The position numbers and the translations under genes were made by a program. The notes beneath the pieces are model-generated. The model ran no database searches and was not told where the DNA came from. It was given only the letters and a program-made list of their open reading frames with translations. From Isoptericola halotolerans (GTDB lineage: Bacteria > Actinomycetota > Actinomycetes > Actinomycetales > Cellulomonadaceae), in the NCBI RefSeq assembly GCF_003003075.1, contig NZ_PVTX01000002.1:124001-188000 (forward strand): a stretch of DNA of 64,000 nt, given 5' to 3'. The first letter of the stretch is position 1. Every line of letters begins with the position of its first letter. Shown here one piece after another: positions 20,386-37,799 of the stretch.

Positions 20386-21669
20386 GTGAGCAGCCAGTAC
20401 GCGCGGCGCGTCGTGGACAGCTTCCTCGACGACTTTCAGCCTCACCTGCGGGCTCTTGCCCTGCAGGGCCCCAAGGCGGTGGGCAAGACCGCCACCGCGA
20501 GCCAACGGGCCCGTACGGTCTACGACCTCTCCGATGACCAGGTTCGCGAGATCGTCGCCGCCGACCCCGGTGTGTTGACCAGCGCGCCCGGCCCGGTACT
20601 GGTCGACGAGTGGCAGCGATTGCCTGCCGTGTGGGACATGGTCAAACGCGCCGTGGACGCTGGCAGCCCGCCCGGACACTTCATCCTTGCGGGGTCCTCG
20701 GTCCCCCAGGGCGCGCAGATCCACTCCGGAGCCGGACGCATCGTGCCGCTGCGCATGCGCCCGCTGAGCCTCGCCGAGCGCAGACTCCAGGAACCATCCG
20801 TGTCCTTGGCCGACCTGCTCGAGGGCGGAGCCGGACTGGCGGGGGCCACCGAAGTGATCCTGCGTGACTACGTCCGGGAGATCACCGCGTCCGGACTGCC
20901 CCACCTGCGCACTCTGCCCGCCCCAGTGCGGGAGATCGAGCTCGACGCCTACCTCGACAACGTCGTGACCAAGGAGTTCCCCGAGCAGGGGTATACCGTG
21001 CGTCGGCCCGCCGCCCTGATGTCCTGGCTGACGGCCTACGCGGCGGCGACTTGCACGCAGACCGACTACACAAAGATCGTCGCTGCGGCGGCGTTCGCCA
21101 AGGACTCCCAGCCTTCCAAGAACACCATCATCGCGTGGCGCGAGGCCCTGGAGAGCCTGTGGCTGCTCGAGCCGGTACCTGCCTGGCCCGGACATCCGGC
21201 CCTACCTGCTCTGGCCTCGAAGGAGACCCACCAGCTGACCGACACGGCCCTGGCGACCCGCCTGCTGCACCTGGACGAGGCCCGCCTGCTGCGCGGCGAG
21301 TCGGGCTCCACGACCCTGCCTCCGGTCAAGGGGGCGACCAAGTCCGTCCTCGGCCGACTGTTCGAGAACCTCGTGACATCCAGCGTGCGCACATATTCCG
21401 ACGCCGCACGTGCGCAGGTGTTTCACCTGCGCACCGCCAAGGGCGACCATGAGGTTGACATCATCATCCAGCGGCCAGACGGCAAGGTTCTGGCGATCGA
21501 GGTCAAGCTGGCGACCACCGTGGACGCCGACGACGCTCGACACCTGCGCTGGTTGCGCGAGAAGCTCGGCGACGACCTGGTCGACGCCGTCGTCGTGACC
21601 ACTGGTTCACATGCCTACCGCCGCCCGGACGGGGTCGGTGTCGTTCCGGTGGCGCTGCTCGGGCCTTGA
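20386..21669 (+). CDS. ATP-binding protein with DUF4143 (AAA ATPase plus PD-(D/E)xK-like domain)
   Basis: 427 residues. The N-terminal AAA_14-type ATPase has Walker A GPKAVGKT (28-35) and Walker B PVLVDEWQRLP (D74, E75). The FILAGSSVPQ sensor and RIVPLRMRPLSLAER match the family. The C-terminal DUF4143 domain ends in EVDIII...VLAIEVK (D358, E372, K374), a PD-(D/E)xK nuclease signature. Members are abundant in bacteria and archaea, often near toxin-antitoxin and defence genes, but their function is largely unproven. It is the first gene of the island and is followed by the Fic gene after a 150-base gap. Confidence 0.88.
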   Translation: MSSQYARRVVDSFLDDFQPHLRALALQGPKAVGKTATASQRARTVYDLSDDQVREIVAADPGVLTSAPGPVLVDEWQRLPAVWDMVKRAVDAGSPPGHFILAGSSVPQGAQIHSGAGRIVPLRMRPLSLAERRLQEPSVSLADLLEGGAGLAGATEVILRDYVREITASGLPHLRTLPAPVREIELDAYLDNVVTKEFPEQGYTVRRPAALMSWLTAYAAATCTQTDYTKIVAAAAFAKDSQPSKNTIIAWREALESLWLLEPVPAWPGHPALPALASKETHQLTDTALATRLLHLDEARLLRGESGSTTLPPVKGATKSVLGRLFENLVTSSVRTYSDAARAQVFHLRTAKGDHEVDIIIQRPDGKVLAIEVKLATTVDADDARHLRWLREKLGDDLVDAVVVTTGSHAYRRPDGVGVVPVALLGP

Positions 21670-21763
21670 CGCAACTCCCAACCGCGACCGAAACACGGGG
21701 AGCGGCGCGTCAGGCGTTGATACCGCCCAGGTGGGCCAGCCGGGTGGTGGGCCGAACGCAGGA

Positions 21764-21830
21764 TGACACTATGACTTAATCATTGCGTCATCGGGAGCGG
21801 CCGTGACACTATGATTAAGTCATCGTGTCA
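21764..21830. promoter_or_regulatory. Tandem 27-bp palindromic operators upstream of Fic gene
   Basis: Two imperfect palindromes, 21764-21790 and 21804-21830, both begin TGACACTATGA and end in GCGTCA or GTGTCA. The cores ATGACTTAATCAT (21771-21783) and ATGATTAAGTCAT (21811-21823) are exact reverse complements of one another. The centres are 40 bp apart, close to four helical turns, so bound dimers would face the same side. A TATGAT -10 candidate (21810-21815) lies inside the second site, so occupancy would block transcription. The likely ligand is the winged-helix C-terminus of the Fic protein or an unlinked regulator. Confidence 0.7.
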
Positions 21831-21845
21831 CGCGAGGAGCGGATC

Positions 21846-23003
21846 GTGCCCACCATCTACCGGACGCCCGAGATCGACATCGAGGACACCGGAGTCGTCG
21901 CCGAGATCCAGGATCTCCGCGACTCCCTCGCTTTAATGCTCCGCACACCGCGCCGCTGGACGAGCGGTATGCGCCGCACCACGCAGGCACGCGCCATCCA
22001 AGGGTCCAACACCATCGAGGGCTACACCGTGTCGGACCAAGACGCTCTGGCCGCTGTCGACGACGAGCCTCCCCTGACAGCAGACCAGCGCACCTGGTCC
22101 GAGATCCTGGGCTACCGCCGGATGATGACGTACATCCTGAGGATGGCGCCCGAGCCCGGATTCGCCGTGGACTCCCAGACCTTGCGGTCGTTGCACTTCA
22201 TGCTGATGGAACACGACCTGTCGGTCGATCCGGGACGGTTCCGGCCGGGATCGATCTACGTGCGCGACGACGCGGCCGATGTCACCGTCTACGAGGGACC
22301 GCCGTCAGAGACAGTGACGGAGCTCGTTGACGAGCTGGTGGGCTCGTTGCGGACGGACGGGACCGACACCCTGGTCGACGCCGCCATGGCACACCTCAAC
22401 CTCGTGATGATCCACCCGTTCAAGGACGGCAACGGGCGGATGGCACGCGCGCTGCAGACGCTGGTGCTCGCCCAGGACCGTGTGCTGGAACCGACGTTTT
22501 CCAGCATCGAGGAATGGCTCGGCAAGAACACCGACGACTACTACCGCGTCCTGGCGGTGACCGGCGCCGGCGCCTGGAATCCGCAGAACGATGCCGGACT
22601 GTGGATCAAGTTCAACCTCCGCGCCCACCACATGCAGGCACAGACGCTGCAGCGCCGATTCGACGAGGCCGACCGAACGTGGGTGGCGCTCGACGAGCTC
22701 ATCACGCGGTTCAGCCTGCATTCCCGCGTCGCTGATGCCCTGTTCGACGCCGTCCGCGGGTTGCGCGTCGTTCGACCGACCTATGTGAAGCAGAGCGGGG
22801 TCGAGGAGCAGACGGCGAGCCGCGACCTGCGAGGGCTGGTTTCGGCGGGCCTGCTCGAAGCCCACGGGCAGACGCGGGGGCGCTACTACACGGCGAGCGG
22901 GGCGTTGCGAGAGCTCGGGGAGGAGATCAGGGCTGACCGGCCAGCGCTGGCGGATCCGTATCCGTGGTTGATCGTGGAGTTGCGGCGGCGGGCCGGGAGG
23001 TAG
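21846..23003 (+). CDS. Fic family protein (AMP-transferase type) with C-terminal winged helix
   Basis: 385 residues. The Fic core contains the catalytic motif HPFKDGNGRMAR (H190-R201), which transfers AMP or another nucleotide moiety to target hydroxyls. An N-terminal inhibitory helix SNTIEG (S54-G59, the S/TxxxEG motif) marks the self-inhibited class in which Glu58 obstructs ATP positioning. The last roughly 110 residues include a winged helix (YVKQSGVEEQTASRDLRGLVSAGLLEAHGQTRGRYY) that suits DNA binding. The GTG at 21846 was chosen because GAGGAG at 21834-21839 is well placed; an earlier GTG at 21825 lies inside the operator. Codon 30 is the rare leucine codon TTA (21933). It stands alone between 94-base and 108-base gaps. 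Confidence 0.9.
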   Translation: MPTIYRTPEIDIEDTGVVAEIQDLRDSLALMLRTPRRWTSGMRRTTQARAIQGSNTIEGYTVSDQDALAAVDDEPPLTADQRTWSEILGYRRMMTYILRMAPEPGFAVDSQTLRSLHFMLMEHDLSVDPGRFRPGSIYVRDDAADVTVYEGPPSETVTELVDELVGSLRTDGTDTLVDAAMAHLNLVMIHPFKDGNGRMARALQTLVLAQDRVLEPTFSSIEEWLGKNTDDYYRVLAVTGAGAWNPQNDAGLWIKFNLRAHHMQAQTLQRRFDEADRTWVALDELITRFSLHSRVADALFDAVRGLRVVRPTYVKQSGVEEQTASRDLRGLVSAGLLEAHGQTRGRYYTASGALRELGEEIRADRPALADPYPWLIVELRRRAGR

Positions 23004-23111
23004 AACGACGCCCACACTTGTACGCAGGTAGCTGATCTGCAGTGGGTCGCGACCCCGAGAGCTCATTCACGCGAGTGGCCTGCGCCCCTCCGAGCTGCCA
23101 AGCTCGGGCCC

Positions 23112-23354
23112 ATGGCAGACAAGCACATCCTTCGGGAGTGGGTCCTGGAGGCGCTCGAGGAGCTCAACGGTCGTGGCACGGTCGTCGAGGTCTCGCAGGT
23201 GGTGTGGCGACGCCATGAGTCTGACCTTCGAGCTGCAGGAAGCCTCTTCTACACCTGGCAGTACGACATCCGCTGGGCCGCCCAGCAGCTTCGCAACGAA
23301 GGGCTCCTTCGAAAGACGGCACCCCGCAGCCGGGATCCCTGGAGCCTGCCCTGA
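23112..23354 (+). CDS. Small winged-helix protein (Mrr N-terminal-like), partner of HNH nuclease
   Basis: 80 residues: ILREWVLEALEELNGRGTVVEVSQVVWRRHESDLR...LFYTWQYDIRWAAQQLRNEGLLRK. This is the wHTH found at the N-terminus of Mrr-type restriction proteins, usually fused to a nuclease domain, but here it is a free-standing protein. It is followed after 28 bases by an HNH endonuclease gene with its own GGAGG site, so the two probably act together, with the small protein supplying DNA or modified-DNA recognition. No methyltransferase is adjacent. Confidence 0.7.
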   Translation: MADKHILREWVLEALEELNGRGTVVEVSQVVWRRHESDLRAAGSLFYTWQYDIRWAAQQLRNEGLLRKTAPRSRDPWSLP

Positions 23355-23382
23355 GTGGCACGAGCCGAACCGGAGGTCGCCG

Positions 23383-24372
23383 ATGGCATTCACTCAGGCG
23401 GACTACTTCGACCTGACGCAAGCGCAGGCAGCTCAGCAATGGCAGGACATCCTCGCGCGTTCGTGGCCGGTGGCCGGCAAGCAGGTCCCGTTCGTGCCGG
23501 TGGAAACACTCCTCTGCCTCGCGGCGATGTTCGTCGTGGAACACTCCAGGTTCGGGAGTAGCAGTGCCCACCGAGCTCCCGAGCCGGTCCAGTCGCTCGC
23601 GCGCCTCGTGAAGCGCCCGCCGACCAGCATCATCGCAAAGATGAACAATCTGGACGGGTCCCGATCGCACGGTGCCAGTAACGACCTTCTGGTCGGATCT
23701 GTCCTCCGGACGGACCCACGTGCGATGGCTGACCTCTATCGAGTCATCCTCGCCGCAGGGCGCACGGCAGGCATCGACAGCGCGACGCTTCCCGACTTCC
23801 TGGACGTGGAGAGCGGGCGCGATCTGGAGCTTCTGGGCCAAGATGAGCTTGCGGGCGGCGCGCTCGAGTCCGTGGTCGAGCGCGAGATCCACGAGTGGCT
23901 GGTCGACGATGTCGAGGAACGCGTGACGGAGCGTCTTATCCTCGCTTCGCTGAGGGTGGGCCAGCATCGGTTCGCTACCTCGGTCCTTGATTCCTGGTCC
24001 CACGAATGCGCCTTCTGTGGCTTCGCTATGCACGATGAGGTGCGCCCGACCCTTCTCCGCGCCAGCCACATCAAGCCATGGCGGGACTCCAAGGCTCGTG
24101 AGCGGCTCGATGCCTCGAACGGGTTCGCTGCGTGCCCGGTCCACGATGCGGCGTTTGACGCCGGGTTGCTGACTGTCACTGACGATCTGGACGTTCGGGT
24201 CTCCGACCGGTTGACACGCACGATCGATGCGAACCCTCCCGCGCGCGTCTACTTCACCGCGCCGCAGCTCCGAGGTCGCGTAGCGGTTCCGCACAACGGA
24301 CGCCCTCCGGGTAAGTCCTATATGGAGTGGCATCGCACCAGAGTGTTCGTGAACACGCCAGCCTCTGCGTGA
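23383..24372 (+). CDS. HNH endonuclease (restriction-type)
   Basis: 329 residues from the ATG at 23383, with GGAGG at 23372-23376. The N-terminal 200 residues are helical and include PVETLLCLAAMFVVEHSRFG and KRPPTSIIAKMNNLDG, a fold shared by HNH proteins annotated as restriction endonucleases. The C-terminal HNH domain has a zinc-binding C209-x2-C212, H229 in ASHIKPW, N246 and C251-x2-H254 in NGFAACPVHDAAFDAGLLTV. It probably cuts DNA directed by the winged-helix neighbour. Codon use is less GC-biased than in the backbone, in line with recent acquisition. A 200-base gap with only spacer sequence follows. Confidence 0.85.
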   Translation: MAFTQADYFDLTQAQAAQQWQDILARSWPVAGKQVPFVPVETLLCLAAMFVVEHSRFGSSSAHRAPEPVQSLARLVKRPPTSIIAKMNNLDGSRSHGASNDLLVGSVLRTDPRAMADLYRVILAAGRTAGIDSATLPDFLDVESGRDLELLGQDELAGGALESVVEREIHEWLVDDVEERVTERLILASLRVGQHRFATSVLDSWSHECAFCGFAMHDEVRPTLLRASHIKPWRDSKARERLDASNGFAACPVHDAAFDAGLLTVTDDLDVRVSDRLTRTIDANPPARVYFTAPQLRGRVAVPHNGRPPGKSYMEWHRTRVFVNTPASA

Positions 24373-24574
24373 AGGAGGTTCTGGGCGTCCGCCGGACGCA
24401 GCGAGGCGGCCGACTTCACCCACCGCGCCGGTCACTTTGCCTACATTTGACGGCTACGCTTCCCGTGCCAGGAGCAACGGATCCTCCCGCTGGGGCGAAG
24501 GAGGCACTCGGCGTCCCGGGCGGCGAGAATGGGCGCACCCCGCCACGTAGCAAGCACCACCGAGAGGTACACGC

Positions 24575-27500
24575 GTGACAGCACCGACGACGGCGCCACG
24601 GACCACCGAGCTCGACGCCGCTCCCGGATCCACGGTCGTCATCCGCGACGAGGAGTGGCTCGTCACGCAGGTGGAGCCGACGGCGGACGGCCACTTCGTT
24701 CATGTGGTCGGCCTCTCAGGCCTGGTCCGGGACACGGAGGCCGTGTTCTCCACCGCGATCGAAGACGTCGCCGTCGCGGACCCGGCCGACGCCGCCGTCG
24801 TGGCGGACGAGTCCCCGCGCTACCGCGAGTCCCGTCTCTGGCTGGAGGCGATGCTGCGCAAGACGCCGGTCCCGGTCACGGAGGACGCGCTGACGACGGC
24901 GCACCGCGCACTGGCCGACCCGCTGCCGTACCAGTTCGAGGCGGTGCGCAAGGCCCTCCACCCGGACAACCTGCGCCCCCGCATCCTGCTGGCTGACGCC
25001 GTCGGCCTGGGCAAGACGCTCGAGATCGGCATGATCCTCTCCGAGCTGGCCCGCCGGGGCCGTGGTGAGCGGATCCTGGTGGTGACGCCCAAGCACGTGC
25101 TGGAGCAGATGCAGTTCGAGCTGTGGACCCGCTTCGCGCTGCCGTTCGTGCGCCTCGACTCCACGGGCATCCAGCGCATCCGCCAGAAGCTCCCGGCGAA
25201 CCGCAACCCGTTCGCGTTCTTCAAGCGCGTCATCATCTCGATCGACACCCTCAAGAGCGACAAGTACGTGGCGCACCTGCGCCGTCACCGGTGGGACGCC
25301 GTCGTCATCGACGAGTCGCACAACGTCACGAACTCCTCGACCCAGAACTTCCGCCTCGCCTCGATGCTGGCCCGGCAGACGGACGCCATGGTCCTGGCCT
25401 CGGCCACGCCTCACAACGGCGACCCGCGGTCGTTCGCGGCGCTGGTCCGCATGCTCGAGCCGTCGGCAGTGAAGCCCGACGGCGTCGAGCTGGACGAGGA
25501 GCAGGTCAAGCGCCTCATCGTGCGCCGCCACCGGCACTCGCCCGAGGTCGCCTCGGTGGTGGGCGCGGACTGGGCGGAGCGCAAGGAGCCGCAGAACGTC
25601 CTGGTGACCCCTTCGCCGCTCGAGGAGGAGATCGCCGTCGAGCTGGAGGACATCTGGCTCTGGCCCACGCGCGGCACTTCCCCGTACTCGGGCCGCGGCG
25701 GTGCCACGCTGTTCCCCTGGACCCTCGCCAAGGCGTTCCTCTCGTCGCCCGCCGCGCTGGAGGAGTCCGTGCGCAAGCGCCTGCGCGCGCTCGACGCAGG
25801 CACCGAGACCTCCGACGACGACGAGTCGCTCGTCACGCCGGACGCAGCCGAAGGCGGCACCCCGGACGAGCGAGCCACCGCGGGCACCGGGACCCGTGCC
25901 ACCGAGCGCACCGCCCTGGCCCGCCTGCACGACCTCGCGGCCCGCTCGCTCACCGAGCGCTCGGCGAAGTACGACGCGCTGCGCGACCATCTACGCGGCA
26001 TCGGCGTCGGCAAGGGCTCCGACATGCGCGCGGTGGTCTTCGCCGAGCGCGTCGCGACGCTGGGCTGGCTGCAGGGCCGGCTGGTCACGGACCTCGGCCT
26101 CAAGCCGGAGAACGTGGCCGTGCTGCACGGCGGGCTCTCCGACGTCGACCAGCAGCGGATCGTCGAGTCCTTCAAGCTCGCCTCCTCCCCCATCCGCGTA
26201 CTCGTCACCGGCGACGTGGCGTCAGAGGGCGTGAACCTCCACAGCCACTGCCACCACCTGGTGCACTACGACATCCCGTGGTCCCTCATCCGGATCGAGC
26301 AGCGCAACGGCCGCATCGACCGGTACGGGCAGAAGAACGCGCCGCAGATCACGACGCTGCTGCTGGACCCGCAGCGCACGCGCCGGTTCGGCGGCGACCT
26401 GCGCGTCCTGACGCGCCTCGTCGAGCGTGAGCACCATGCCCACCACGCGCTCGGGGACACCGCCTCGCTCATGGGCCAGTACTCGGTGGCGGCCGAGGAG
26501 AAGTCGATCGCCGACGTCCTCCGCCAGGCTCGCTCCCTGGAGAGCGTCGTCAAGGAGGTCGAGGAGGTCGTGGCGGACGACGGCCCTGCCGGCCTGCTCG
26601 CCCGGCTCATGAACCTCGGCGCGAGCACCGAGGCACCGCCCGCACCAGCAGCGGCCCCCACCGGCGGACGCACCGGGGTGTACGACGATGACCTCGCGTT
26701 CCTCGAGGACGCCCTCACGCAGATCTACACCACACCCGGGCAGGAGCCCTCGAACGGTGTGGCGTGGAAGAAGGCCGCGAACGCCTCGGTCGCCTCTCTC
26801 AAGCCCCCGCGGGACCTGCGGCAGCGCCTCGAGGTGCTCCCGCAGTCCTACCTCGCGGACCGACGCGTCACCGAGGTGCTCCGGTTGGCGACGACGACGG
26901 CGCAGGGCACCCGCGAGCTCGCCAATGCCCGCAGCGCGGAGTCGACGTCGGTGTGGCCGGAGGCCCACTTCCTCGGCCCCCTGCACCCCGTCGTCGAGTG
27001 GGCGTCGGACCGGGCGCTCGCGTCGCTGGGCCGCAACCAGGTCTTCGCCGTCCGTGGCGACCTCGAGGAGTTGACGGTGCTCATCCAGGCCGCGCTGTAC
27101 AACGTGCGCGGGCAGGTGGTGGCGACGTCGTACCAGACGGTGGCGTTCCCGAACCTCGACAACCCGGGCTTCGCGCTCCCGCAGCCGCACGAGTCCGCCG
27201 CAGCGGCGATCGAGGCGCTGCACCTCGGTGCCACGAACAAGGGCGGCGTCGCCGGGGCATCGGGCCTCCAGCCGTACGTGCGCCAGGCCGTGCGCTCGGC
27301 GGAGAGCGCGGTGGGCGACCAGGTCACCTCGATCGAGTTCGCCGCGCAGCAGCGGGTCGAGGCCTGGTTGAAACGCAGTCAGCACTGGCGCATGGAGGCG
27401 ACCGCACTCATCAGCCGTGAGGTGGGGGCCGCCCGGACCGGCATCACGAACCGGCAGTCCGACATCGACGAGGAGTCGCGCCTGGCGCGCGAGATGCTGC

Positions 27501-27601
27501 CGGAGCGCACCCTGCTCCGCCCGCTGCTCGTCGTCGTCCCGCCCGGCCTCGACCTTCCCGAGCCGGAAGCCGAGCCGCACAGCACCGAGGAGAACAACTG
27601 A
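24575..27601 (+). CDS. SNF2-family DEAD/DEAH helicase, DrmD-like
   Basis: 1008 residues from a GTG with GAGAGG seven bases upstream. SNF2/RapA-type motifs are in order: Walker A ADAVGLGKT (140-148), DESH (246-249), LASATPHNG, and in the second RecA lobe motif V GDVASEGVNLHSHCHHLVHYD and motif VI RIEQRNGRIDRYGQ (573-586). The C-terminal 330 residues are helical and poorly characterised. In class 1 DISARM an SNF2-like helicase (DrmD) lies beside a large adenine methylase, exactly the adjacency seen here. The stop overlaps the methylase start by one base (TGATG), so both are translated as a unit. It is an ATP-driven DNA translocase, probably cytoplasmic and part of restriction. Confidence 0.85.
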   Translation: MTAPTTAPRTTELDAAPGSTVVIRDEEWLVTQVEPTADGHFVHVVGLSGLVRDTEAVFSTAIEDVAVADPADAAVVADESPRYRESRLWLEAMLRKTPVPVTEDALTTAHRALADPLPYQFEAVRKALHPDNLRPRILLADAVGLGKTLEIGMILSELARRGRGERILVVTPKHVLEQMQFELWTRFALPFVRLDSTGIQRIRQKLPANRNPFAFFKRVIISIDTLKSDKYVAHLRRHRWDAVVIDESHNVTNSSTQNFRLASMLARQTDAMVLASATPHNGDPRSFAALVRMLEPSAVKPDGVELDEEQVKRLIVRRHRHSPEVASVVGADWAERKEPQNVLVTPSPLEEEIAVELEDIWLWPTRGTSPYSGRGGATLFPWTLAKAFLSSPAALEESVRKRLRALDAGTETSDDDESLVTPDAAEGGTPDERATAGTGTRATERTALARLHDLAARSLTERSAKYDALRDHLRGIGVGKGSDMRAVVFAERVATLGWLQGRLVTDLGLKPENVAVLHGGLSDVDQQRIVESFKLASSPIRVLVTGDVASEGVNLHSHCHHLVHYDIPWSLIRIEQRNGRIDRYGQKNAPQITTLLLDPQRTRRFGGDLRVLTRLVEREHHAHHALGDTASLMGQYSVAAEEKSIADVLRQARSLESVVKEVEEVVADDGPAGLLARLMNLGASTEAPPAPAAAPTGGRTGVYDDDLAFLEDALTQIYTTPGQEPSNGVAWKKAANASVASLKPPRDLRQRLEVLPQSYLADRRVTEVLRLATTTAQGTRELANARSAESTSVWPEAHFLGPLHPVVEWASDRALASLGRNQVFAVRGDLEELTVLIQAALYNVRGQVVATSYQTVAFPNLDNPGFALPQPHESAAAAIEALHLGATNKGGVAGASGLQPYVRQAVRSAESAVGDQVTSIEFAAQQRVEAWLKRSQHWRMEATALISREVGAARTGITNRQSDIDEESRLAREMLPERTLLRPLLVVVPPGLDLPEPEAEPHSTEENN

Positions 27602-30600
27602 TGGCCGCCAGTGACGCGATCGTCGTCGGCGAGGACTGGATCAGCGAGCACTACTTCTCCACGGACGGCAAGCAGTCGTTCCAGGCGAAGGTCCTGGAAC
27701 GGCGCAAGGCATGGGACGACGGCGGCACGGACGCGCCGTCGACCCGCACGCGCTTCGTCGCGGCCCGGGCGGAATCGCTCTCGACGCTCGCCGGGCTCGG
27801 CGAGGAGGGCGGCCGGTTCGCCGTGCTGCCCGAGCTGTACGAGCGGCTGCGCGCCGTCCTTGGCTACACGACGGCGGCCCTGCAGGCCAAGCGCGAGGGC
27901 CCGGTCGAGTGGGTGCACGCGACGGGGCTGGAGGCGAAGGCACCGCTGGTGCTCGTCGAGGCGGTGGCGGTCAAGGACGTCGAGTCGCTGCTCGCCAAGG
28001 GCGACCCGGCCAAGCCCGCACGGGGTGACCGGACCCTGCTGGAGCCGTACCAGGCTGACGAGAAGACCCAGATCTACTCGGTGGCCCGGCTGCTCTCGCA
28101 CCTGTTCGTCCAGGACGAGGGGCCGGACTACGCGCTCGTGCTGGCTGGCGGCTGGCTGCTGGTGGCAGAGAAGGCCCGCTGGGCCGAGGGCCGGTACCTG
28201 GCCGTCGACCTGCAGCTCGTCGCCGAGCGCGCCGACGACAAGCGCGGTGGCGAGACCGACCGCGCGCTGACGTGCGTCGAGGCGGCCTCGCTCGCCCCGG
28301 ACCCCGAGGGCAACCTCTGGTGGCCCGGTGTGCTCGAGGAGTCGGTCAAGCACACCGTGGGCGTCTCGAAGGACCTGCGCGAGGGCGTGCGCCTGTCCAT
28401 CGAGATCATCGCCAACGAGGTGGTCCGCCGCCGTGCCGCCCAGGGGCTCGAGCCGCTGCCGCAGGCGGAGGCGCAGAACCTCGCGCGGCAGTCGTTGCGC
28501 TACCTGTACCGCGTGCTGTTCCTGCTGTACGCGGAGGCCTCCCCCGAGCTCGGCGTGCTGCCCGTCGGCGCGCCGGTCTACGAGCGCGGCTACAGCCTCG
28601 ACCGCCTGCGCGAGCTGACGCTGGTCGAGCTCCCCGGCCCGGCGGCCGAGCACGGCACGCACCTGTACGCCTCGCTCGGCACGCTGTTCCGCATGGTCGA
28701 CACGGGGCACGACGGCGGCGGCACCGGCCCCGAGGCGGGCGATGCCGGGCTGACCTTCACCCCGCTCAAGGCCGACCTGTTCCGACCGGAGGCGACGGCG
28801 CTGATCGACGCCGTCGGGCTCGGGAACGCGGCCCTGCAGCAGGTGCTGCGCCACCTGCTGCTAAGCAAGGAGTCGCGGGGCAAGGACCGCGGGTTCATCT
28901 CGTACGCCGAGCTCGGCATCAACCAGCTCGGCGCGGTGTACGAGGGCCTCATGAGTTACACGGGCTTCTTCGCCACGGAGGACCTGCACGAGGTCGCCAA
29001 GGACGGCAACGCCGAGAAGGGCTCCTGGGTGGTCCCGGTCGTGCGGTCACAGGGCATCGCCCCGAAGGACTTTGTGACGTTCGACGACCCGGTGACCGGC
29101 GAGCCGAAGCCCGTGGTGCACGAGCAGGGCACGTTCGTGTTCCGGCTCGCGGGGCGCGAGCGGCAGCAGTCGGCGTCGTACTACACGCCCGAGGTGCTGA
29201 CCCGGTTCACCGTCTCCCAAGCGCTCGTCGAGCTCATCGGGCCGGACGACCCGGACCCCGAGTCCGTGGAATGGAAGGGCCGTGAGATCCCGCGCAAGCT
29301 CTCGGCTCGCGAGATCCTCGACCTCACCGTCTGCGAGCCGGCCCTCGGGTCCGGCGCATTCGCCATCGAGGCGGTGCGCCAGCTCGCTGCTGCGTACCTC
29401 CGGCGCCGCCAGGCCGAGACCGGCGTGAAGATCGAGCCGGACGAGTACGCGCGCGAGCTGCAGAAGGTCAAGGCGTACATCGCCCTGCACAACGTGTACG
29501 GGGTGGACCTCAACGGCACCGCCGTGGAGCTCGCCGAGATCTCCCTGTGGCTCGACACCATGGGCAAGGGGCTTAGCGCCCCCTGGTTCGGCCTGCACCT
29601 GCGGCGCGGCAACTCCCTCATCGGCGCACGGCGGGCCGTGTACCGGCGCGACCAGCTCGCCAAGAAGGCGTGGCTCCAGTCCGTGCCCGCGGACGTCCCG
29701 CTCGCGCCGTCCGACGGCGATCGTGCGGCCGGGCGCACCAGCTCGCTCGGCGTCGTGGGCGGCCGGATCCACCACTTCCTGCTGCCCGCCGCAGGATGGG
29801 GCAGCGCCGTCGAGGCCAAGGAAGCCAAGGAGCTCGCCCCCGAGGCGCTCGCGCGGCTCAAGGCCTGGCGCAAGTCCGTGCTCGTCACTCCGTCGAAGAA
29901 GCAGGCCGACGAGCTGGTGAAGCTCGGCCACCGGGTCGAGGTGCTCTGGGACCTCGCGCACCGACGCCTCGAGATCGCCGAGCAGCAGATCCGGCGGTCG
30001 CTCGATGTCTGGGGCGCCGATGACCTGCCCGTCGGCGGCGAGGTGACCCGCGAGCAGATCGAGGCGGCGCTTGCCGATGCTCGGGGTGCTTACCGGCGGT
30101 TGCGGTTGGTGATGGACGCCTGGTGCGCGCTGTGGTTCTGGCCGCTGACGGAGGGGTTAACCCGGGTTAACCCCGCCGGGGACTCGGCTGAGGCCGGCGT
30201 CGTGGAGCCGCCGAACCTGGACGAGTGGACCGCCGGGCTCCGCGCTGTGCTCGGCGTCCACACCGAGACCGGTGCTACCGGTCACGGCAAGGCGTGGCGC
30301 GGTGGCGACCAGACGTTCGCCTCCACGGCGGACTGGGACCAGCTCAACGAGACCGAGGAACTTGAGCTCTCCTTCGCCGGCGCGGTCGCGCCCGAGCGGG
30401 TGCTGGCTGACCATCCGTGGCTACGCGTGTGCCAGCAGGTGGCCGAGCGGCAGGGCTTCTTCCACTGGGAGCTCGACTTCGCGCCGGTGTTCGCCGCGCG
30501 GGGCGGCTTCGACCTGCAAGTGGGCAACCCGCCGTGGGTGCGGCCGGACTTCGACGAGGCGGCGTCGCTCGCCGAGTACGAGATCGCCTTCGCGCTAGAG

Positions 30601-32517
30601 GGCAAGATCGCGACCGCCCGCGCCAACGAGCTGCGATCCACAACGCTCGCGAACGCGGCGGCGCGAGATTTCTACCTCGACTCGCTCATCGCCACGATCG
30701 GTACGCGCGAGGCGGCATCTAGCGTTCCCGACTTTCCGCACCTCGCGGGTCTCCGTCCCGATCTCTACCGCTGCTTCATGGAGCAGACCTGGCGTCACCA
30801 CTCGGCATCCGGGGCGGTCGGACTCATCCACCCGGAGACGCATTTCACGGACGAGAAGGCCGGACCGCTCCGAGGTGCGGCCTACGGACGCTTGCGTCGG
30901 CACTGGCAGTTCATCAACGAACTGCAGCTCTTCGAGATTCACCACCTCGTCAGCTACGGGATACACGTCTACGGTGCCGAGCGAACTCCTCACTTCCTCC
31001 AGGCGGCATCTCTCTATCACCCCGACACAGTCGACCGCTCGGCTATGCACGACGGCACCGGTGAGGAACCTGGCCTGAAGGACCCGGACGGCCGCTGGGA
31101 TGTGCGGCCGCACCGCGACCGAATCATCAGCGTCGACAAGACGGTGCTCAGCACCTGGCACGCCGTCCTGGAAAACGCGAACGTGCCGATGACCCAGACC
31201 CGCATGGTCTATGCGGTCAACCGCGCGACGATCTCGGTGCTCGACAAGGTCGCCGAGGCGCCGCGCATCGGATCGCTCGCCCTCGAGTTTTCCCAGGGCT
31301 GGAACGAGACCACGGACTTCAAGAAGGGCTACTTCGGGAAGGAGTGGGATATCGCGGACTCGTGGGGCGATGCCATCCTTCAAGGCCCCCACCTGCACGT
31401 GGCGAACCCCGCCTACAAGACGCCCAACGAGTCGATGAAGAGCAACCTCGACTGGTCGGTGGTCGACCTCGAGGAGCTCGCGCCTCGCGCGATCCCGGCG
31501 ACGTCGTACAAGCCGCGAGGCGACCGGGCTGCCTACGACGCGGCGTACACGCACTGGACCCGCGACGTCGTGCTCGGTCCGGACGGCAACCCCGTCGATG
31601 ACATCCCTGCGGTCGACCCGAAGTACATCTGCGACGTCGAGACCGCCACCCTCGCCGACGGCACCGCCGTCCGCACCGAAACCATCTCGTCAAGGGCATT
31701 TTATCGGATCGCCTGGCGGAAGATGGCTGCAAACACCGGTGAGCGAACCTTAATCCCGGCAATCATCCCGCGAGACTGTGCGCCCACACACGGCCTGACT
31801 TGCGTGGGTTCTCCGCGCGGCAGCCAACGTGATCTCGTCGTGTGTGCAGGGTCTCTGGCTTCGCTCCTCTCGGACTTCACGGTCCGTGTCGCACCCAAGG
31901 CCAACATCCTGATGTCGACGGTTTCAGCCCTGGCCGAGGTCGTTAGCGGCCCTTGGGGAATGGCGATCGCACTCCGTGCCCTACGCCTCAACTGCGTCAC
32001 CGATGCCTATGCCGATCTGTGGGCCGAGTGCTACGAATCGACGTTCCGAGAGGACTTGTGGACCGGTCTACCGGAGCGCACCGGCTGGGTCGACCTCGGC
32101 GATGTCGGGCCGGAGTGGACCCCGGACATGCCGCTGCGCCGGGCCGAGGACCGCCGTCAGGCGATGCTGGAGATCGACGCCCTGGTCGCCCTCTCCCTGG
32201 GCCTGACCGCCGACGAGCTGTGCACGATCTACCGCACCCAGTTCCCGGTGCTTTACGGCTACGACCGCAACCGCGACCACTACGACGCCAACGGCCGCAT
32301 CGTCCCCAACACCGTGCTGACCACGTGGCGCAAGCGCGGCGGCAACGACGGCCGCTACTCCGACGAGGACCTCACCGCCACCCACCCTGGCAGCGGCGTC
32401 GACTACTCCTACGAGCTCCCCTTCGAGACCCTCGACCGCGAGGCCCACATGCGCCAGGCCTATGCCGCCTTCGAGTCCCGCCTCGCTGGCTCGTCGACTG
32501 ACGAGGCGAAGGCATGA
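27601..32517 (+). CDS. Eco57I-type adenine-specific DNA methyltransferase, DrmMI-like (very large)
   Basis: 1638 residues. SAM-binding motif I is CEPALGSGAF (578-587), and the catalytic motif IV is NPPW (976-979) in LQVGNPPWVRPDF, so the spacing between them is unusually wide (about 390 residues). YYTPEVLTRFTVSQALVE just before motif I is typical of type IIG/Eco57I and BREX/DISARM-type N6-adenine methylases. The N-terminal 530 residues and the C-terminal 600 residues are probably target recognition and scaffolding. No clear PD-(D/E)xK nuclease motif was found, so it is more likely a self-marking methylase than a complete restriction enzyme. Rare TTA codons occur at 853 and 1384. A perfect 22-bp palindrome lies within the gene. 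It is translationally coupled to the helicase. Confidence 0.87.
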   Translation: MAASDAIVVGEDWISEHYFSTDGKQSFQAKVLERRKAWDDGGTDAPSTRTRFVAARAESLSTLAGLGEEGGRFAVLPELYERLRAVLGYTTAALQAKREGPVEWVHATGLEAKAPLVLVEAVAVKDVESLLAKGDPAKPARGDRTLLEPYQADEKTQIYSVARLLSHLFVQDEGPDYALVLAGGWLLVAEKARWAEGRYLAVDLQLVAERADDKRGGETDRALTCVEAASLAPDPEGNLWWPGVLEESVKHTVGVSKDLREGVRLSIEIIANEVVRRRAAQGLEPLPQAEAQNLARQSLRYLYRVLFLLYAEASPELGVLPVGAPVYERGYSLDRLRELTLVELPGPAAEHGTHLYASLGTLFRMVDTGHDGGGTGPEAGDAGLTFTPLKADLFRPEATALIDAVGLGNAALQQVLRHLLLSKESRGKDRGFISYAELGINQLGAVYEGLMSYTGFFATEDLHEVAKDGNAEKGSWVVPVVRSQGIAPKDFVTFDDPVTGEPKPVVHEQGTFVFRLAGRERQQSASYYTPEVLTRFTVSQALVELIGPDDPDPESVEWKGREIPRKLSAREILDLTVCEPALGSGAFAIEAVRQLAAAYLRRRQAETGVKIEPDEYARELQKVKAYIALHNVYGVDLNGTAVELAEISLWLDTMGKGLSAPWFGLHLRRGNSLIGARRAVYRRDQLAKKAWLQSVPADVPLAPSDGDRAAGRTSSLGVVGGRIHHFLLPAAGWGSAVEAKEAKELAPEALARLKAWRKSVLVTPSKKQADELVKLGHRVEVLWDLAHRRLEIAEQQIRRSLDVWGADDLPVGGEVTREQIEAALADARGAYRRLRLVMDAWCALWFWPLTEGLTRVNPAGDSAEAGVVEPPNLDEWTAGLRAVLGVHTETGATGHGKAWRGGDQTFASTADWDQLNETEELELSFAGAVAPERVLADHPWLRVCQQVAERQGFFHWELDFAPVFAARGGFDLQVGNPPWVRPDFDEAASLAEYEIAFALEGKIATARANELRSTTLANAAARDFYLDSLIATIGTREAASSVPDFPHLAGLRPDLYRCFMEQTWRHHSASGAVGLIHPETHFTDEKAGPLRGAAYGRLRRHWQFINELQLFEIHHLVSYGIHVYGAERTPHFLQAASLYHPDTVDRSAMHDGTGEEPGLKDPDGRWDVRPHRDRIISVDKTVLSTWHAVLENANVPMTQTRMVYAVNRATISVLDKVAEAPRIGSLALEFSQGWNETTDFKKGYFGKEWDIADSWGDAILQGPHLHVANPAYKTPNESMKSNLDWSVVDLEELAPRAIPATSYKPRGDRAAYDAAYTHWTRDVVLGPDGNPVDDIPAVDPKYICDVETATLADGTAVRTETISSRAFYRIAWRKMAANTGERTLIPAIIPRDCAPTHGLTCVGSPRGSQRDLVVCAGSLASLLSDFTVRVAPKANILMSTVSALAEVVSGPWGMAIALRALRLNCVTDAYADLWAECYESTFREDLWTGLPERTGWVDLGDVGPEWTPDMPLRRAEDRRQAMLEIDALVALSLGLTADELCTIYRTQFPVLYGYDRNRDHYDANGRIVPNTVLTTWRKRGGNDGRYSDEDLTATHPGSGVDYSYELPFETLDREAHMRQAYAAFESRLAGSSTDEAKA
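30153..30174. repeat. Perfect 22-bp palindrome inside the methylase gene
   Basis: GGGGTTAACCC at 30153-30163 is followed directly by GGGTTAACCCC at 30164-30174, two HpaI-type GTTAAC cores 11 bp apart. It encodes GLTRVNP and includes a rare TTA leucine codon (30157). Coding need alone would not require it. Confidence 0.85.
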
Positions 32518-32554
32518 GCCGCCCGAAACTCCTGATGACGGCGGCGGCATCTAT

Positions 32555-32572
32555 CTCCGATGATGGTCGGAG
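32555..32572 (+). terminator. Small hairpin in the 100-bp gap before the helicase-nuclease-Lsr2 gene
   Basis: CTCCGA (32555-32560) pairs with TCGGAG (32567-32572) around a six-base loop. It could be a weak attenuator or only chance. It is the one symmetric element in the gap, which otherwise carries the GAAGGA ribosome site (32605-32610) of the next gene. Confidence 0.25.
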
Positions 32573-32617
32573 AGCGAATCACTCGAGCACGATGAGAACA
32601 GCACGAAGGACATACCC

Positions 32618-35600
32618 GTGAGCCAGACGAACACTGACGCGCACTACCGGGTGGTCGATCAGAGTTCCCGCCTGTTGGCCTACCTGTCAGCCGTCGCGCG
32701 TGAGGTCGGCCCTGCGCCCGTCCGGGACGTGCGACATCACGAGTTCACCCTCTGGCCGGCCGACGTACCGTCCCACCGCGCGGTCCTGGCGGGGCCGACG
32801 CAGGAGCGACTCTCGTGGCTGCAGGTGAAGCGCGTTCCTCAACCTGCGCAGGTGACGGTTCCCGAGGACCTCCAGCCACTCCTGGACGCCAGGTCGATCG
32901 CTGAACCAACGGACCAGCCACGACTTCGACCCGAAGCTGTCGACGCATGGCTCCGCGCGCAGGTCCCGGACCCGGACGAGGAAGCGCAGCTCGACGCAGA
33001 TGCCCAGGAACCGGAAGCGCGGCCCGACCTTGAAGCCGAGGACGAGGACGAGCCCGCCACCGAAGTCCCCGACGTCGACGAGCAGCGGGCGATCCTCCGA
33101 GAAGAGCTCGACGAGAAGTTCTCTGCATGGCTCTCGACCACGTGGCAGAACTGGGTCGCGGTCGTCACACCAGACCTCGCCGCACGAGCCCTCTACGGCA
33201 AGCTCTACGGCCTCCACCTGCGTGCCGAGGCGGAGCAGGACCAGTACGAGGTGGTCTGGGGCCACTCAGTCATCTCCTACCGAGGAGAAGGGGTCGGCGT
33301 CGTCGCACCGTTGCTGACCGCTCCGGTCGTCGTCGAGATGGACGACAACGACGGCTCGATCCGGGTCACGCCAGAACGTACCGTCGAGCTGGAGCTCGAT
33401 GCCCTCGAGGGCACCGGCCTCAGCGGCTTCGAAGGGCTCGTCGCCCTCCGTGCCAAGGTGCAGGAGACTCCGCCGGACCCTTGGTCTCCTGAAGAGATCG
33501 CTGGTGTCCGGGGACAGATCGTCTTTCCTCTCGGTCAGGACGCGACGCTCAGTAGCAGCACCGATCCTGCGCCCGCCACAGGCAAGCCGGTCCTCAACGA
33601 GGGCTGGGTCCTGATGCTTCGCAAACGCCCACTACGTCAGGAGCGGTTCTACGACGAGCTCTCCGACAAGCTTCGCGAGACAGAGCGGGTGCCGGACGCT
33701 CTGGCATCCGTCGTCGCCGACAAGGACATCGTCGATCATGCGCTGCGCGCCCTCGGGCACGACGTCGACACCGATGACGGCACGGCCCGCCGTCTGCTCA
33801 TGCCGCTGCCGACGAACGAGGACCAGGAACGGATCGCGCGCCAGCTCTCGCACTCACGCGGTGTGACCGTGCAGGGCCCGCCCGGAACCGGCAAGTCGCA
33901 CACGATCGTCAACCTTCTCTCGCACCTCGTGGCGCAGGGCAAGCGCGTACTGGTGACGGCCCAGAACGATCAAGCCCTGCGGGTGCTGCGGGACAAGATC
34001 CCCGAACAGCTTCGTGACCTCTCCGTCGCCGTCCTCGGATCGACACCCGCCGCCATGGAGGACCTCCGCAGCTCAGCCCAATCCATGCAGGACTCCCTCT
34101 CGTCGATCGACCCGCGGCGCGAGGAGAAGCGGATCTCCGAGCTGGGCGACAAGATCGACCAGGTTCGCGAGAACCTGCGCCGAACGGACCTGGCACTCAT
34201 CGAGGCCCTACGCAGCGAGCAGCGCGAGTACCCGCTTCCCGCCGGGCCCGTGCGCGCGCCCCAGCTTGCCGAGTGGGTCACCTCGCGGCGCGGCATCGAC
34301 GTGATCCCCGACCGGGTGCCGGCGCAGTCGCGCATCCCGCTCAACCCGGACGAGCTGATCGAGCTGCAGGACCTCGCCCAGACGATCGACCCTGGGGACG
34401 CCGAGCGCGCGGGTCTCGACCTACCGGACGAGAACTGGTTGCCCGCAGGCGCTCAGCTGCGTCAGCTCTTCGACCGTATCGACGAGCTCCAGACGACGGT
34501 CACGTCCCTCGAATCCGGTGGTCTGCGCATCGAAGCCGTCGACCGCCTGAGCCACTCGGCCCTCGAAGCCACCGCTCAGTCTGCGCGCCAGGAGGCGCAG
34601 GCGCTCGAGACCTTGGGCGGGGACTGGGAGACACGACTTGCTCAGGGGATCCTCCACGGCAACCCGGCGGTGGCCTTCACGATTGAGCACAACCACGCCG
34701 TGGGTGCGAAGCTCGCCGAGGCGCGCGCCATGAAGTCACAGACCGCAGGACACGAGATCGAGGTCCCTGACGGGGACCCTCACATCCAGCTTCCCCTCCT
34801 CCGGCAGTGGTCCGAACGGCTCGCCGCCGGAAAGAAGCTCCCTCTGGTCGGCGCACGGGACCTCAAGGAGCTCAGCAACCAGGTCAAGGTCAGCGGATAC
34901 CCCGTGAGAACAGCCCAACAGGTCGATCTCGTCGCCTGGGCTGTTCGCCTCCGCGCCATGCTGGTCGAGGTGCGGCGACTCATGGCCAGCGCCTACGAAC
35001 CCTTCAACATCCCCCTCCCCGACCAGGGGACGGCCTTCCAGTTCGAAGCAGAGCAGCTCGCGCAACGCGTGGTGTCCGTCCACCGGTGGTGGAGCTCCGT
35101 CCATCCAGGACTGGCCGGGACGCTCGCCCCGCTGACGTCCTTTGCCGATCCGGCGGGTTCGGTGCAGTCGTTGCAGCGAACAGGGGAACTCCTGTCGTCG
35201 GCGGCAGCGCGCCTGGAAGAGCGCGAGCTCAGCGCTCGACTCCACCAGCTGGCGGTCGACCTTGACCAGCGCTCCACCCAGGAGAAGTCCTCGGAGCTCT
35301 GGGGAGCCCTCGGATCAGCTCTAGCGGCCAGAGAGCCGGGCCGCTGGGAACAAGTTCAGGCCGAATCGAGCAGGCTCCTGACAGTCCGCCCTCGCGTCCA
35401 CCGCCGCGCCGAGCTCCTCACCCGCCTGGCGGATGCTGGAGCACCCTTGTGGGCCCGCTCGATCCTCGCCTCCGCCGGTGACACCTCCGTCGTCGGCGAC
35501 CCGCATGATGCCGCCTCGGCCTGGACCGTCGCTGCCGCAAGATCATGGTTGACGACCCTGCACAGCGAGTCGGACGTCTCGCGCCTGATGGAACGCGCTC

Positions 35601-37789
35601 ACGAGGAGGCCGCCGACCTCCGCCTGCTCATCATTGATCTCGCCAGCAGGTCAGCGCGGCTCCGCCTCATGCAGAACACCAAGGACCGCCAGCGCAAGGC
35701 GCTCGGCACGTGGCTCGAGGCCACCCGCCGCGCCGGCAAAGGTACGGGGAAGAACGCGCCACGATTCCTCGCCCAGGCCCGGGCAGCGCTGCCCGAGGCT
35801 ATGGGCTCGGTTCCGGTCTGGATCATGCCGATCTATCGCGTGCTGGAGAACTTCGACCCCAGGGTCTCCGAACCGTTCGACGTCGTCATCGTCGACGAGT
35901 CGTCCCAGTGCGACCTGCTCTCCCTGGGAGTGCTCGCGCTCGGTGAGAAGTCCGTCGTCGTCGGCGACGACAAGCAGACCTCGCCCCAGGCTGTGGGCGT
36001 GAAGACCGACCGCATCTTCGACCTGCAGAGCCAGTTCATCGCGGACCTGCACGACAAGTCGCTGCTCACGATGGACGAGTCCCTCTACTCCATCTCCGGC
36101 CGCGCCTTCCCGTCCACGATCCTCCTGCGTGAGCACTTCCGCTGCGTGCCGGAGATCATCTCGTTCTCCAACCGCTACTACAACGGCAAGGTGCTGCCCC
36201 TGCGTGAGGTCACCGTTCCGCAGATCGGTGGGCCCCTCCGGGCCGTCCACGTGGCTGACGGAGCGTCCGTGCGCACCGGCTCGCACCGGACCAACCGAAG
36301 AGAGGCCGAAGTCCTGGTCGAGCAGATCGCCGAGTGCTCCGCCGACCCGCACTACGACGGCCTCACGTTCGGCGTCGTAACGATGATGAGCGGTCCACAG
36401 GCTCAGATCATCGAGAGCATGCTGGTCGAGCGCCTCGGCACAGAAGAGTACGAGCGTCGGCACCTACGGGTCGGCAACCCTCCGGTGTTCCAGGGCGACG
36501 AACGCAACATCGTCTTCATCTCGGTCGTCGCCGACGACGACTCCTTCGCCGCCACACGGACGATGCACGAGCAGTGGGCAAACGTCGCAGCGTCACGAGC
36601 CCAGGACCAGCTGTGGGTCTTCTACAGCGTCGACCCGTCGACGCTCAACCACAACGATCAACGGCGCCACCTCGTCGAGCACGTACGGGACGCGGGACGG
36701 CGTGTCGACCCGACCGACCTGTACGAGCTCACCGAGTCAAAGTTCGAGCGTGACGTCCTCGCTCAGATGCTCGAACGGGGCTATGACGTCGCTCCTCAGC
36801 ACAAGGTCGGCGCCTACCGCATCGACTTCATGGTGACCGTCGGCGAGGGGGAACGGCTCGCCGTCGAGTGCGACGGCGACTCGTTCCACGGCCCCGACAA
36901 GTGGGACGAGGACGTTCGACGCCAACGAGTGCTCGAGCGACTCGGCTGGAGCTTCTGGCGGGTTCGGGCCTCTGCCTACTACCTCGACCCCGATGCTGCC
37001 ATGCAGCCCCTCTGGGAGCGTCTCGACGGGATGAAGGAGCGCGCCGTGGAGAACGAGGAGCGGCGCCGTGCTCAGGACGCGAAGCGCGCGGCCGAACGAC
37101 TTGCTCAGCTGGAACGCGAGGCAGAGCAGGCAGCCGAATCTGCTCCGACCAAGCGGAGCGACAGTGAAGATGTCGCCGCGGCAGAGGATCCGAAGAGTCC
37201 GAACTCCGAGGAACCACACAACATCGCAGTGGCATCCGCTGCGCCCTCTCGTAGCCCGAGCGCTCGCACGTCCTCGGCGTCGGCCGAGGTGCCGCCATCC
37301 GTCATCCGACAGTGGGCACGCGCGAACGGGGTCGCCGTCGGTGACCGTGGTCGCCTCTCTCCGGAGGTCCGGCGAGCTTACGACGAGGCCCACGCCCGGC
37401 GATCGGAACAGGTTTCTACGGAGGCCCAGGAGCCCCTCGCCCTTCCCGACAACTCGGTGGCACAGAGAACGGCACCCGACCTTGCGGCAACGACTCCCCC
37501 GTCGCTCGCCGAGATCGAGAACGCCTGGCACACCGGTCAGCGCTACCAGCTCGACTACACGGGTTCCGTACGCCCCCGGGACGGTGGCGTGGACCTTGAG
37601 TCGGCGATCGGTGAGGTCGCCGCACGCCCTGTCATCGAGGCTATGCGACGCGCACGGCCCAGCGGCGGCACGTTCAAGATCGACGACTCGGGCATTCTCG
37701 TCACGTACCAGGACAGAGTCCCCGCGTTCGTGATGCGCGTGGCACCCGAAAACTGGTTCCCCGGCCACTTGCGGTCAGCGCAACGATGA
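32618..37789 (+). CDS. SF1 helicase fused to Vsr/MTES_1575-type nuclease and Lsr2-type DNA-binding motif
   Basis: 1723 residues. After an N-terminal acidic, Asp/Glu-rich stretch (about 115-160), the SF1 ATPase core has Walker A GPPGTGKS (420-427), Walker B DESSQ (D1093, E1094), GDDKQTSPQ, EHFRCVPEIISFSNRYYN and NVAASRAQDQLW. The two halves are separated by about 650 residues of mainly helical insert. A nuclease domain follows (about 1372-1460) with E1377, D1403 in YRIDFMV and E1417-C-D1419 in AVECDGDSFH, the MTES_1575/Vsr fold. After a charged linker, residues 1560-1593 (IRQWARANGVAVGDRGRLSPE) copy the C-terminal DNA-binding motif of Lsr2, including the AT-hook-like RGR at 1577-1579. About 130 further residues are unassigned. 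It probably acts in the cytoplasm as a sensor and cutter of AT-rich foreign DNA. Confidence 0.85.
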   Translation: MSQTNTDAHYRVVDQSSRLLAYLSAVAREVGPAPVRDVRHHEFTLWPADVPSHRAVLAGPTQERLSWLQVKRVPQPAQVTVPEDLQPLLDARSIAEPTDQPRLRPEAVDAWLRAQVPDPDEEAQLDADAQEPEARPDLEAEDEDEPATEVPDVDEQRAILREELDEKFSAWLSTTWQNWVAVVTPDLAARALYGKLYGLHLRAEAEQDQYEVVWGHSVISYRGEGVGVVAPLLTAPVVVEMDDNDGSIRVTPERTVELELDALEGTGLSGFEGLVALRAKVQETPPDPWSPEEIAGVRGQIVFPLGQDATLSSSTDPAPATGKPVLNEGWVLMLRKRPLRQERFYDELSDKLRETERVPDALASVVADKDIVDHALRALGHDVDTDDGTARRLLMPLPTNEDQERIARQLSHSRGVTVQGPPGTGKSHTIVNLLSHLVAQGKRVLVTAQNDQALRVLRDKIPEQLRDLSVAVLGSTPAAMEDLRSSAQSMQDSLSSIDPRREEKRISELGDKIDQVRENLRRTDLALIEALRSEQREYPLPAGPVRAPQLAEWVTSRRGIDVIPDRVPAQSRIPLNPDELIELQDLAQTIDPGDAERAGLDLPDENWLPAGAQLRQLFDRIDELQTTVTSLESGGLRIEAVDRLSHSALEATAQSARQEAQALETLGGDWETRLAQGILHGNPAVAFTIEHNHAVGAKLAEARAMKSQTAGHEIEVPDGDPHIQLPLLRQWSERLAAGKKLPLVGARDLKELSNQVKVSGYPVRTAQQVDLVAWAVRLRAMLVEVRRLMASAYEPFNIPLPDQGTAFQFEAEQLAQRVVSVHRWWSSVHPGLAGTLAPLTSFADPAGSVQSLQRTGELLSSAAARLEERELSARLHQLAVDLDQRSTQEKSSELWGALGSALAAREPGRWEQVQAESSRLLTVRPRVHRRAELLTRLADAGAPLWARSILASAGDTSVVGDPHDAASAWTVAAARSWLTTLHSESDVSRLMERAHEEAADLRLLIIDLASRSARLRLMQNTKDRQRKALGTWLEATRRAGKGTGKNAPRFLAQARAALPEAMGSVPVWIMPIYRVLENFDPRVSEPFDVVIVDESSQCDLLSLGVLALGEKSVVVGDDKQTSPQAVGVKTDRIFDLQSQFIADLHDKSLLTMDESLYSISGRAFPSTILLREHFRCVPEIISFSNRYYNGKVLPLREVTVPQIGGPLRAVHVADGASVRTGSHRTNRREAEVLVEQIAECSADPHYDGLTFGVVTMMSGPQAQIIESMLVERLGTEEYERRHLRVGNPPVFQGDERNIVFISVVADDDSFAATRTMHEQWANVAASRAQDQLWVFYSVDPSTLNHNDQRRHLVEHVRDAGRRVDPTDLYELTESKFERDVLAQMLERGYDVAPQHKVGAYRIDFMVTVGEGERLAVECDGDSFHGPDKWDEDVRRQRVLERLGWSFWRVRASAYYLDPDAAMQPLWERLDGMKERAVENEERRRAQDAKRAAERLAQLEREAEQAAESAPTKRSDSEDVAAAEDPKSPNSEEPHNIAVASAAPSRSPSARTSSASAEVPPSVIRQWARANGVAVGDRGRLSPEVRRAYDEAHARRSEQVSTEAQEPLALPDNSVAQRTAPDLAATTPPSLAEIENAWHTGQRYQLDYTGSVRPRDGGVDLESAIGEVAARPVIEAMRRARPSGGTFKIDDSGILVTYQDRVPAFVMRVAPENWFPGHLRSAQR

Positions 37790-37799
37790 AGGAGCAGCG

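What the first reader, a model, noticed from the sequence alone, without database searches (positions are those of the whole stretch)
21764..23003. Fic protein likely autoregulated through twin 27-bp palindromes
Two phased operators (centres 40 bp apart) cover the presumed -10 box of the fic gene, and the protein ends in a winged helix. A Fic enzyme that binds its own operator and carries an SxxxEG self-inhibition motif would be a one-gene toxin with both transcriptional and catalytic restraint.
Basis: partly seen in the sequence, partly recalled or inferred. Interest (0 to 1): 0.6.

Follow-up and report, generated by a model that had tools for sequence, protein, structure and literature searches.

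The report
Self-repressing Fic enzyme with paired operators
A bacterial gene for a self-inhibited AMP-transferring (Fic) enzyme carries two matching DNA switches at its start, and comparison with about two hundred relatives indicates that the enzyme itself reads those switches to keep its own gene turned down.

Summary
Two 27-bp palindromes (21764-21790, 21804-21830; start-to-start 40 bp) precede a class II Fic gene (GTG 21846 to 23003), and in the 3.85-Mb genome they occur nowhere else at ≤3 mismatches. The protein has the FIC motif, the SxxxEG inhibitory motif and a confidently modelled C-terminal winged helix (pLDDT 91).

Of 138 related fic upstreams, 113 carry such inverted repeats, against 99 of 3180 control windows. 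The operator sequence differs between subfamilies and tracks one residue of the Fic recognition helix: at position 322, Gln goes with TGAC half-sites, Arg or His with TGTC, Asp with TGC. This column ranks first of 366, and 26 of 26 classifiable Gln/Arg loci fetched later agree. Only 4-5 independent switches are visible on the tree, so the phylogeny-corrected test is not significant. No neighbour gene is conserved. Operators and fic travel as one block.

Autorepression by a Fic protein is already published for CccR of Yersinia pseudotuberculosis. This is a new member of that kind, in actinobacteria, related to the Sofic anti-phage family. DNA binding, toxicity and defence are untested.

The parts
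21764..21790 (.). operator 1, 27-bp palindrome; contains TGAC-N11-GTCA (21772-21790) plus an extra TGAC half-site 8 bp further out
   Evidence: conserved in L003-L007
21804..21830 (.). operator 2, 27-bp palindrome, starts 40 bp after operator 1
   Evidence: 40-bp spacing kept in all five loci (window included) where both copies score
21810..21815 (+). TATGAT, the presumed -10 box inside operator 2 (unsupported candidate)
   Evidence: sequence only; the promoter scan found none
21834..21839 (+). GAGGAG, probable ribosome-binding site
   Evidence: sequence; six bases before GTG 21846
21846..23003 (+). fic, class II Fic AMP-transferase with C-terminal winged helix, 385 aa
22005..22022 (+). inhibitory motif S54-NTIE-G59 (SxxxEG), N-terminal to the FIC motif
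   Evidence: S54, N55, I57, E58, G59 invariant in 48 aligned sequences
22413..22448 (+). FIC motif H190-PFKDGNGRMA-R201
   Evidence: Pfam Fic E 1.7e-15; H190, D194, G195, G197, R198, R201 invariant
22722..22895 (+). winged helix-turn-helix, residues 293-350
   Evidence: AlphaFold2 model, mean pLDDT 91
22809..22811 (+). codon of Gln322, second residue of the recognition helix, which tracks the third base of the operator half-site

Best explanation
The locus is a one-gene, self-repressed class II Fic AMP-transferase. The Fic protein, probably as a dimer, docks its C-terminal winged helices on TGAC half-sites in the two operators and blocks transcription of its own gene. Gln322 at the start of the recognition helix contributes to reading the third base of the half-site. 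Meanwhile the SxxxEG helix keeps the active site closed. Shown here by sequence comparison: the operators, their conservation, the covariation with residue 322, the absence of a conserved partner gene, and the unit operator+fic. Inferred: binding, repression, dimerisation, AMPylation, toxicity, and a likely anti-phage role of the Sofic kind.
For: Operators only at fic in the genome. Among 18 genomes of the genus the pattern occurs in 6: 4 beside fic, 1 beside the remains of a decayed fic, 1 a three-mismatch hit. 113 of 138 related upstreams carry A, B or C sites against 99 of 3180 control windows, and two B sites occur in 63 of 138 against 1 of 3180. Residue 322 against third base over 202 loci: Gln A 60, T 1, unclear 18; Arg T 69, G 1, unclear 11; His T 5, unclear 2; Asp C 4, unclear 5. 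This is the top column of 366, at 0.89 of the label entropy against 0.67 for the next, residue 320 just before the same helix. Later loci: Gln to TGAC 21 of 21 and Arg to TGTC 5 of 5 classifiable. In 24 of the 33 Gln-type relatives below 50% identity that have an exact TGAC-N11-GTCA (65 such relatives examined), TTGAC is followed 17-18 bp later by TAnnnT. No neighbour family is in more than 4 of 49 loci. Homology to L061, L005 and L064 runs from about 21762 to about 23000 and ends there. CccR, a homologue over both domains (7xux, E 2.3e-14), is published as autorepressing.
Against: No binding or expression data. The operator type changed only about five times on the tree. Independent pairs agree with Gln322 in 3.0 of 5 and 2.1 of 4, never the other way, p 0.25-0.5. 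Of 202 loci, 53 could not be classified, including 18 of 79 with Gln. Residues Gly, Asn, Thr, Leu and Val do not fit a simple rule. In relatives below 50% identity taken alone, 322 is not among the 12 best columns. Arg reading a T:A pair is not a textbook contact (recalled). No promoter was found in the window.
Confidence: 0.86

Rival explanations
1. Another DNA-binding protein of the cell, not Fic, binds the palindromes and controls fic.
For: Nothing here shows direct binding; many regulators bind 19-27 bp palindromes (recalled).
Against: The operator type tracks Fic residue 322 better than any other Fic column; no regulator gene is conserved nearby; the site occurs only at fic or a fic remnant in the genus, apart from one three-mismatch hit; the site moves with fic.
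Confidence: 0.07
2. The palindromes act in RNA, as hairpins or an attenuator in the fic leader.
For: As RNA the 91-nt stretch folds well (-41.9 kcal/mol, z -5.3) and each palindrome makes a hairpin.
Against: Any DNA palindrome folds so; there is no Rfam match. In 24 of 33 distant Gln-type relatives with an exact site, it sits between apparent -35 and -10 boxes, hence is not transcribed. Covariation with a DNA-binding helix is not explained.
Confidence: 0.04
3. The paired repeats are marks of a mobile element's ends and have no role in regulating fic.
For: Homology blocks between fic-bearing genomes begin at operator 1, and fic is patchy (5 of 18 genomes of the genus).
Against: Repeats lie on one side only; homology ends at the stop codon without a matching repeat in these alignments; no recombinase family recurs beside it; in distant relatives the repeats sit at promoter boxes.
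Confidence: 0.03

Closest known systems
CccR of Yersinia pseudotuberculosis (PDB 7XUX; PMC9755527, passages read)
   Same: Class II Fic with N-terminal inhibitory helix and C-terminal HTH; represses its own promoter by binding palindromic DNA as a dimer; homologous over both domains.
   Different: Its footprint is AGATAATCAT-N26-ATGATAATCT, whereas here there are paired 27-bp sites built on TGAC. CccR is a type VI secreted effector that AMPylates FtsZ; secretion was not examined here.
Sofic / SoFic anti-phage defence protein (PADLOC SoFic; 3zcn; PMC12249575, abstract and passages read)
   Same: Full-length model match, E 1.4e-48; closest solved fold by Z; here too it lies among defence genes.
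   Different: Misses NCBIfam's SoFic cut-off (59 bits, cut-off 550). The antitoxin AS1 reported downstream of E. coli Sofic has no conserved counterpart here. The CbFic2 paper says SoFic DNA binding had not been shown.
CbFic2 of Coxiella burnetii (8cil; PMC10628234, abstract and passages read)
   Same: Class II Fic with C-terminal winged helix that binds DNA.
   Different: Tested with random DNA and reported to switch from AMPylation to deAMPylation on DNA binding; no operator was described in the passages read.

Membership tests
Class II Fic AMP-transferases | FIC motif HxFx(D/E)GNGRxxR | tested here: met
   H190-PFKDGNGRMA-R201; Pfam Fic 58 bits, cut-off 24
Class II Fic AMP-transferases | (S/T)xxxE(G/N) inhibitory motif N-terminal to the FIC motif | tested here: met
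   S54-NTIE-G59; S54, E58 and G59 invariant in 48 sequences
Class II Fic AMP-transferases | AMP transfer to a protein target | not testable with these tools
   needs an enzyme assay
CccR-type autorepressing Fic | C-terminal HTH after the Fic domain | tested here: met
CccR-type autorepressing Fic | palindromic sites upstream of its own gene | tested here: met
   the promoter itself was not identified in the window
CccR-type autorepressing Fic | direct binding and negative autoregulation | not testable with these tools
   only indirect support from covariation
CccR-type autorepressing Fic | type VI secretion | not tested
   not searched for
Sofic anti-phage defence | match to the family model | tested here: inconclusive
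   PADLOC SoFic E 1.4e-48, but below NCBIfam and Pfam SoFic cut-offs
Sofic anti-phage defence | protection against phage | not testable with these tools
   needs a plaque assay
Two-gene type II toxin-antitoxin system | adjacent, conserved antitoxin gene | tested here: not met
   no neighbour family in more than 4 of 49 loci, nor small downstream ORF family in more than 4 of 209

The most novel reading that the evidence does not exclude
The operator DNA is the antitoxin. Fic bound to its own twin operators is held as a catalytically silent (or deAMPylating) dimer, so the same DNA represses the gene and restrains the enzyme. Loss of that DNA site, for instance when a phage degrades or remodels the host chromosome, would at once derepress the gene and release the AMP-transferase. 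CbFic2's reported DNA-induced switch and the Sofic defence link make this possible; nothing here tests it.
Probability: 0.12. Interest if true: 0.88.

Novelty: new member of a known kind. Interest (0 to 1): 0.55.

Why it matters
The CccR paper says that class II Fic proteins make up about 80% of the family and that nearly nothing is known of how their activity is modulated. The comparison here suggests that self-repression is the usual arrangement in this actinobacterial family, gives operators for many species at once, and names one residue whose swap should change operator choice. It also makes a direct question testable for Sofic-type phage defence: whether operator DNA controls the enzyme as well as the gene. 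In the searches listed no paper describing operators or a recognition rule for actinobacterial Fic proteins was seen.

Tried and rejected
RNA-level role: no Rfam match; RNA folding is good but expected of DNA palindromes. Antitoxin or partner gene: none conserved. Sigma-70 promoter in the window: none found. A wider regulon: none in the own genome at ≤3 mismatches. Phylogeny-corrected significance for residue 322: tried twice, too few independent switches. The automatic caller made errors that I saw: L163 was called TGTC from a chance GC-rich match, L089 was called G although a TGGCAC...GGACA site is also present, and L123 has a mixed site. These were left in the counts. Literature searches that returned nothing useful.

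Rows dropped: one search reduced 165 loci to 142 distinct ones; one search used 138 of 142 (matches beginning past query residue 20 dropped, L004 kept); one search used 136; one search used 202 loci after dropping short proteins, late starts and short upstreams; the neighbour test used 49 of the 80 named loci (duplicates of other loci and short contigs dropped); control windows lie downstream of fic only. The type A pattern was written from the window's own sites, so its matches in near relatives, not in the window, are the evidence. One search lists many Fic structures; a family not in that list is not excluded.

Full report
What is there. The palindromes are at the stated places: 21764-21790 and 21804-21830, starting 40 bp apart. 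They do not occur elsewhere in the 3.85-Mb genome at up to three mismatches. The fic gene most likely starts at GTG 21846 after GAGGAG, not at GTG 21825, which lies inside operator 2. It encodes 385 residues with the FIC motif (H190-R201), the inhibitory motif SNTIEG (54-59) and a C-terminal winged helix. The AlphaFold2 model has mean pLDDT 91. The best whole-length structural match is SoFic of Shewanella (3zcn, Z 30.4, rmsd 3.3, 338 residues). The nearest named relatives are Isoptericola species at 85-87% identity.

Grammar of the operators. Read by eye, each 27-mer holds half-sites eight bases apart on both strands (TGA at 1 and 9, TCA at 17 and 25). In operator 1 the last 19 bases are TGAC-N11-GTCA. 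Relatives use the same 19-bp frame, with TGTC-N11-GACA in most, often with a further half-site eight bases out.

Conservation. In 142 distinct related upstreams, 138 were scored: 113 have a type A, B or C site, and 63 have two B sites, with spacings clustering at 40-43. In 3180 windows downstream of fic the figures are 99 and 1. All five closest orthologues (71-87% identity) keep the 27-mer at least once at up to four mismatches, and in the five loci, window included, where both copies score the spacing is exactly 40. Palindrome strength alone: score 9 or more in 48 of 136 upstreams against 3 of 408 shuffles, 12 of 134 downstream and 8 of 132 far-upstream stretches.

Who reads the operator. 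The operator type was called from DNA alone. Against 373 alignment columns, residue 322 was the best predictor (0.93 of the label entropy, next 0.68). It is the second residue of the modelled recognition helix H321-333. With 202 loci and four bases, it was again first of 366 (0.89, next 0.67 for residue 320): Gln goes with A (60, against 1 T), Arg with T (69, against 1 G), His with T (5 of 5 called), Asp with C (4 of 4 called); 53 loci were not called. Loci fetched after the rule was noticed agree in 26 of 26 classifiable Gln/Arg cases (2, 24), though many are near relatives of the first set. On a tree of the Fic domain only, the type changes five times. The window's Gln/TGAC clade lies inside an Arg/TGTC group, and a second Gln/TGAC group arises elsewhere. 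Independent pairs never contradict the rule but are too few for significance. Within relatives below 50% identity, other columns do better, as expected where one clade holds nearly all of one type.

Where it acts. Of 65 distant Gln-type relatives, 33 have an exact TGAC-N11-GTCA in the last 60 bases before the start; 24 of these show TTGAC, a 17-18 bp spacer and TAnnnT, and in 19 of the 24 the start codon follows six bases later. There the operator fills the promoter spacer, which suggests block of RNA polymerase and a leaderless message. In the window no promoter was recognised, so the -10 claim stays open.

Unit and neighbours. DNA similarity to L061, L005 and L064 starts at 21761-21764 and ends at 22993-23004: operators plus gene, nothing else. 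No ORF family within about 6 kb recurs in more than 4 of 49 loci, and no small downstream ORF family in more than 4 of 209. Within the genus, 5 of 18 genomes hold a fic of this family, one of them with a TGTC-type operator (L010, G138). One genome without an intact fic (G147) keeps a perfect operator beside a fragment of the fic C-terminus (residues 325-385).

Known relatives. CccR is a class II Fic that represses its own promoter through palindromes (PDB 7XUX) and is a sequence homologue over both domains (E 2.3e-14). CbFic2 binds DNA and is reported to change activity when it does. The window protein matches PADLOC's SoFic model over its length (E 1.4e-48) and lies among candidate defence genes, but misses the stricter SoFic cut-offs. 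Sofic is reported to act by abortive infection, with a small antitoxin AS1.

Verdict. The principle is known from CccR. New here are the actinobacterial operator family, the residue-base rule and the evidence that operator and gene form one unit. What triggers release, and whether the enzyme is toxic or defensive, is unknown.

Noticed in passing
window 20386-40058: The fic gene sits among candidate defence genes: a DUF4143 ATPase (PADLOC PDC-S01), an HNH nuclease, a DrmD-like helicase, a type IIG restriction/DrmMI-like protein and a GmrSD-type protein.
   Followed up: partly
L255:2892-3114 (genome G147): A perfect 27-bp operator survives beside a decayed fic of which only a C-terminal piece remains.
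   Followed up: partly
L208-L212, L220, L240, L248: Relatives with Asp322 carry TGC-N13-GCA-like palindromes, a third operator type.
   Followed up: partly
L110, L118, L124, L204, L206: Relatives with Gly322 have TTGACAgATnATcTGTCAA-like repeats of a different spacing that the 19-bp frame does not fit.
   Followed up: no
L190:3998-5176 (Mycobacterium phage prophiGD12-2): A prophage carries a Fic relative (47% identity) near a polymorphic toxin gene.
   Followed up: no
L129: A contig labelled Gemmatimonadota holds a fic and operator like those of Streptosporangiaceae; transfer or a binning error.
   Followed up: no
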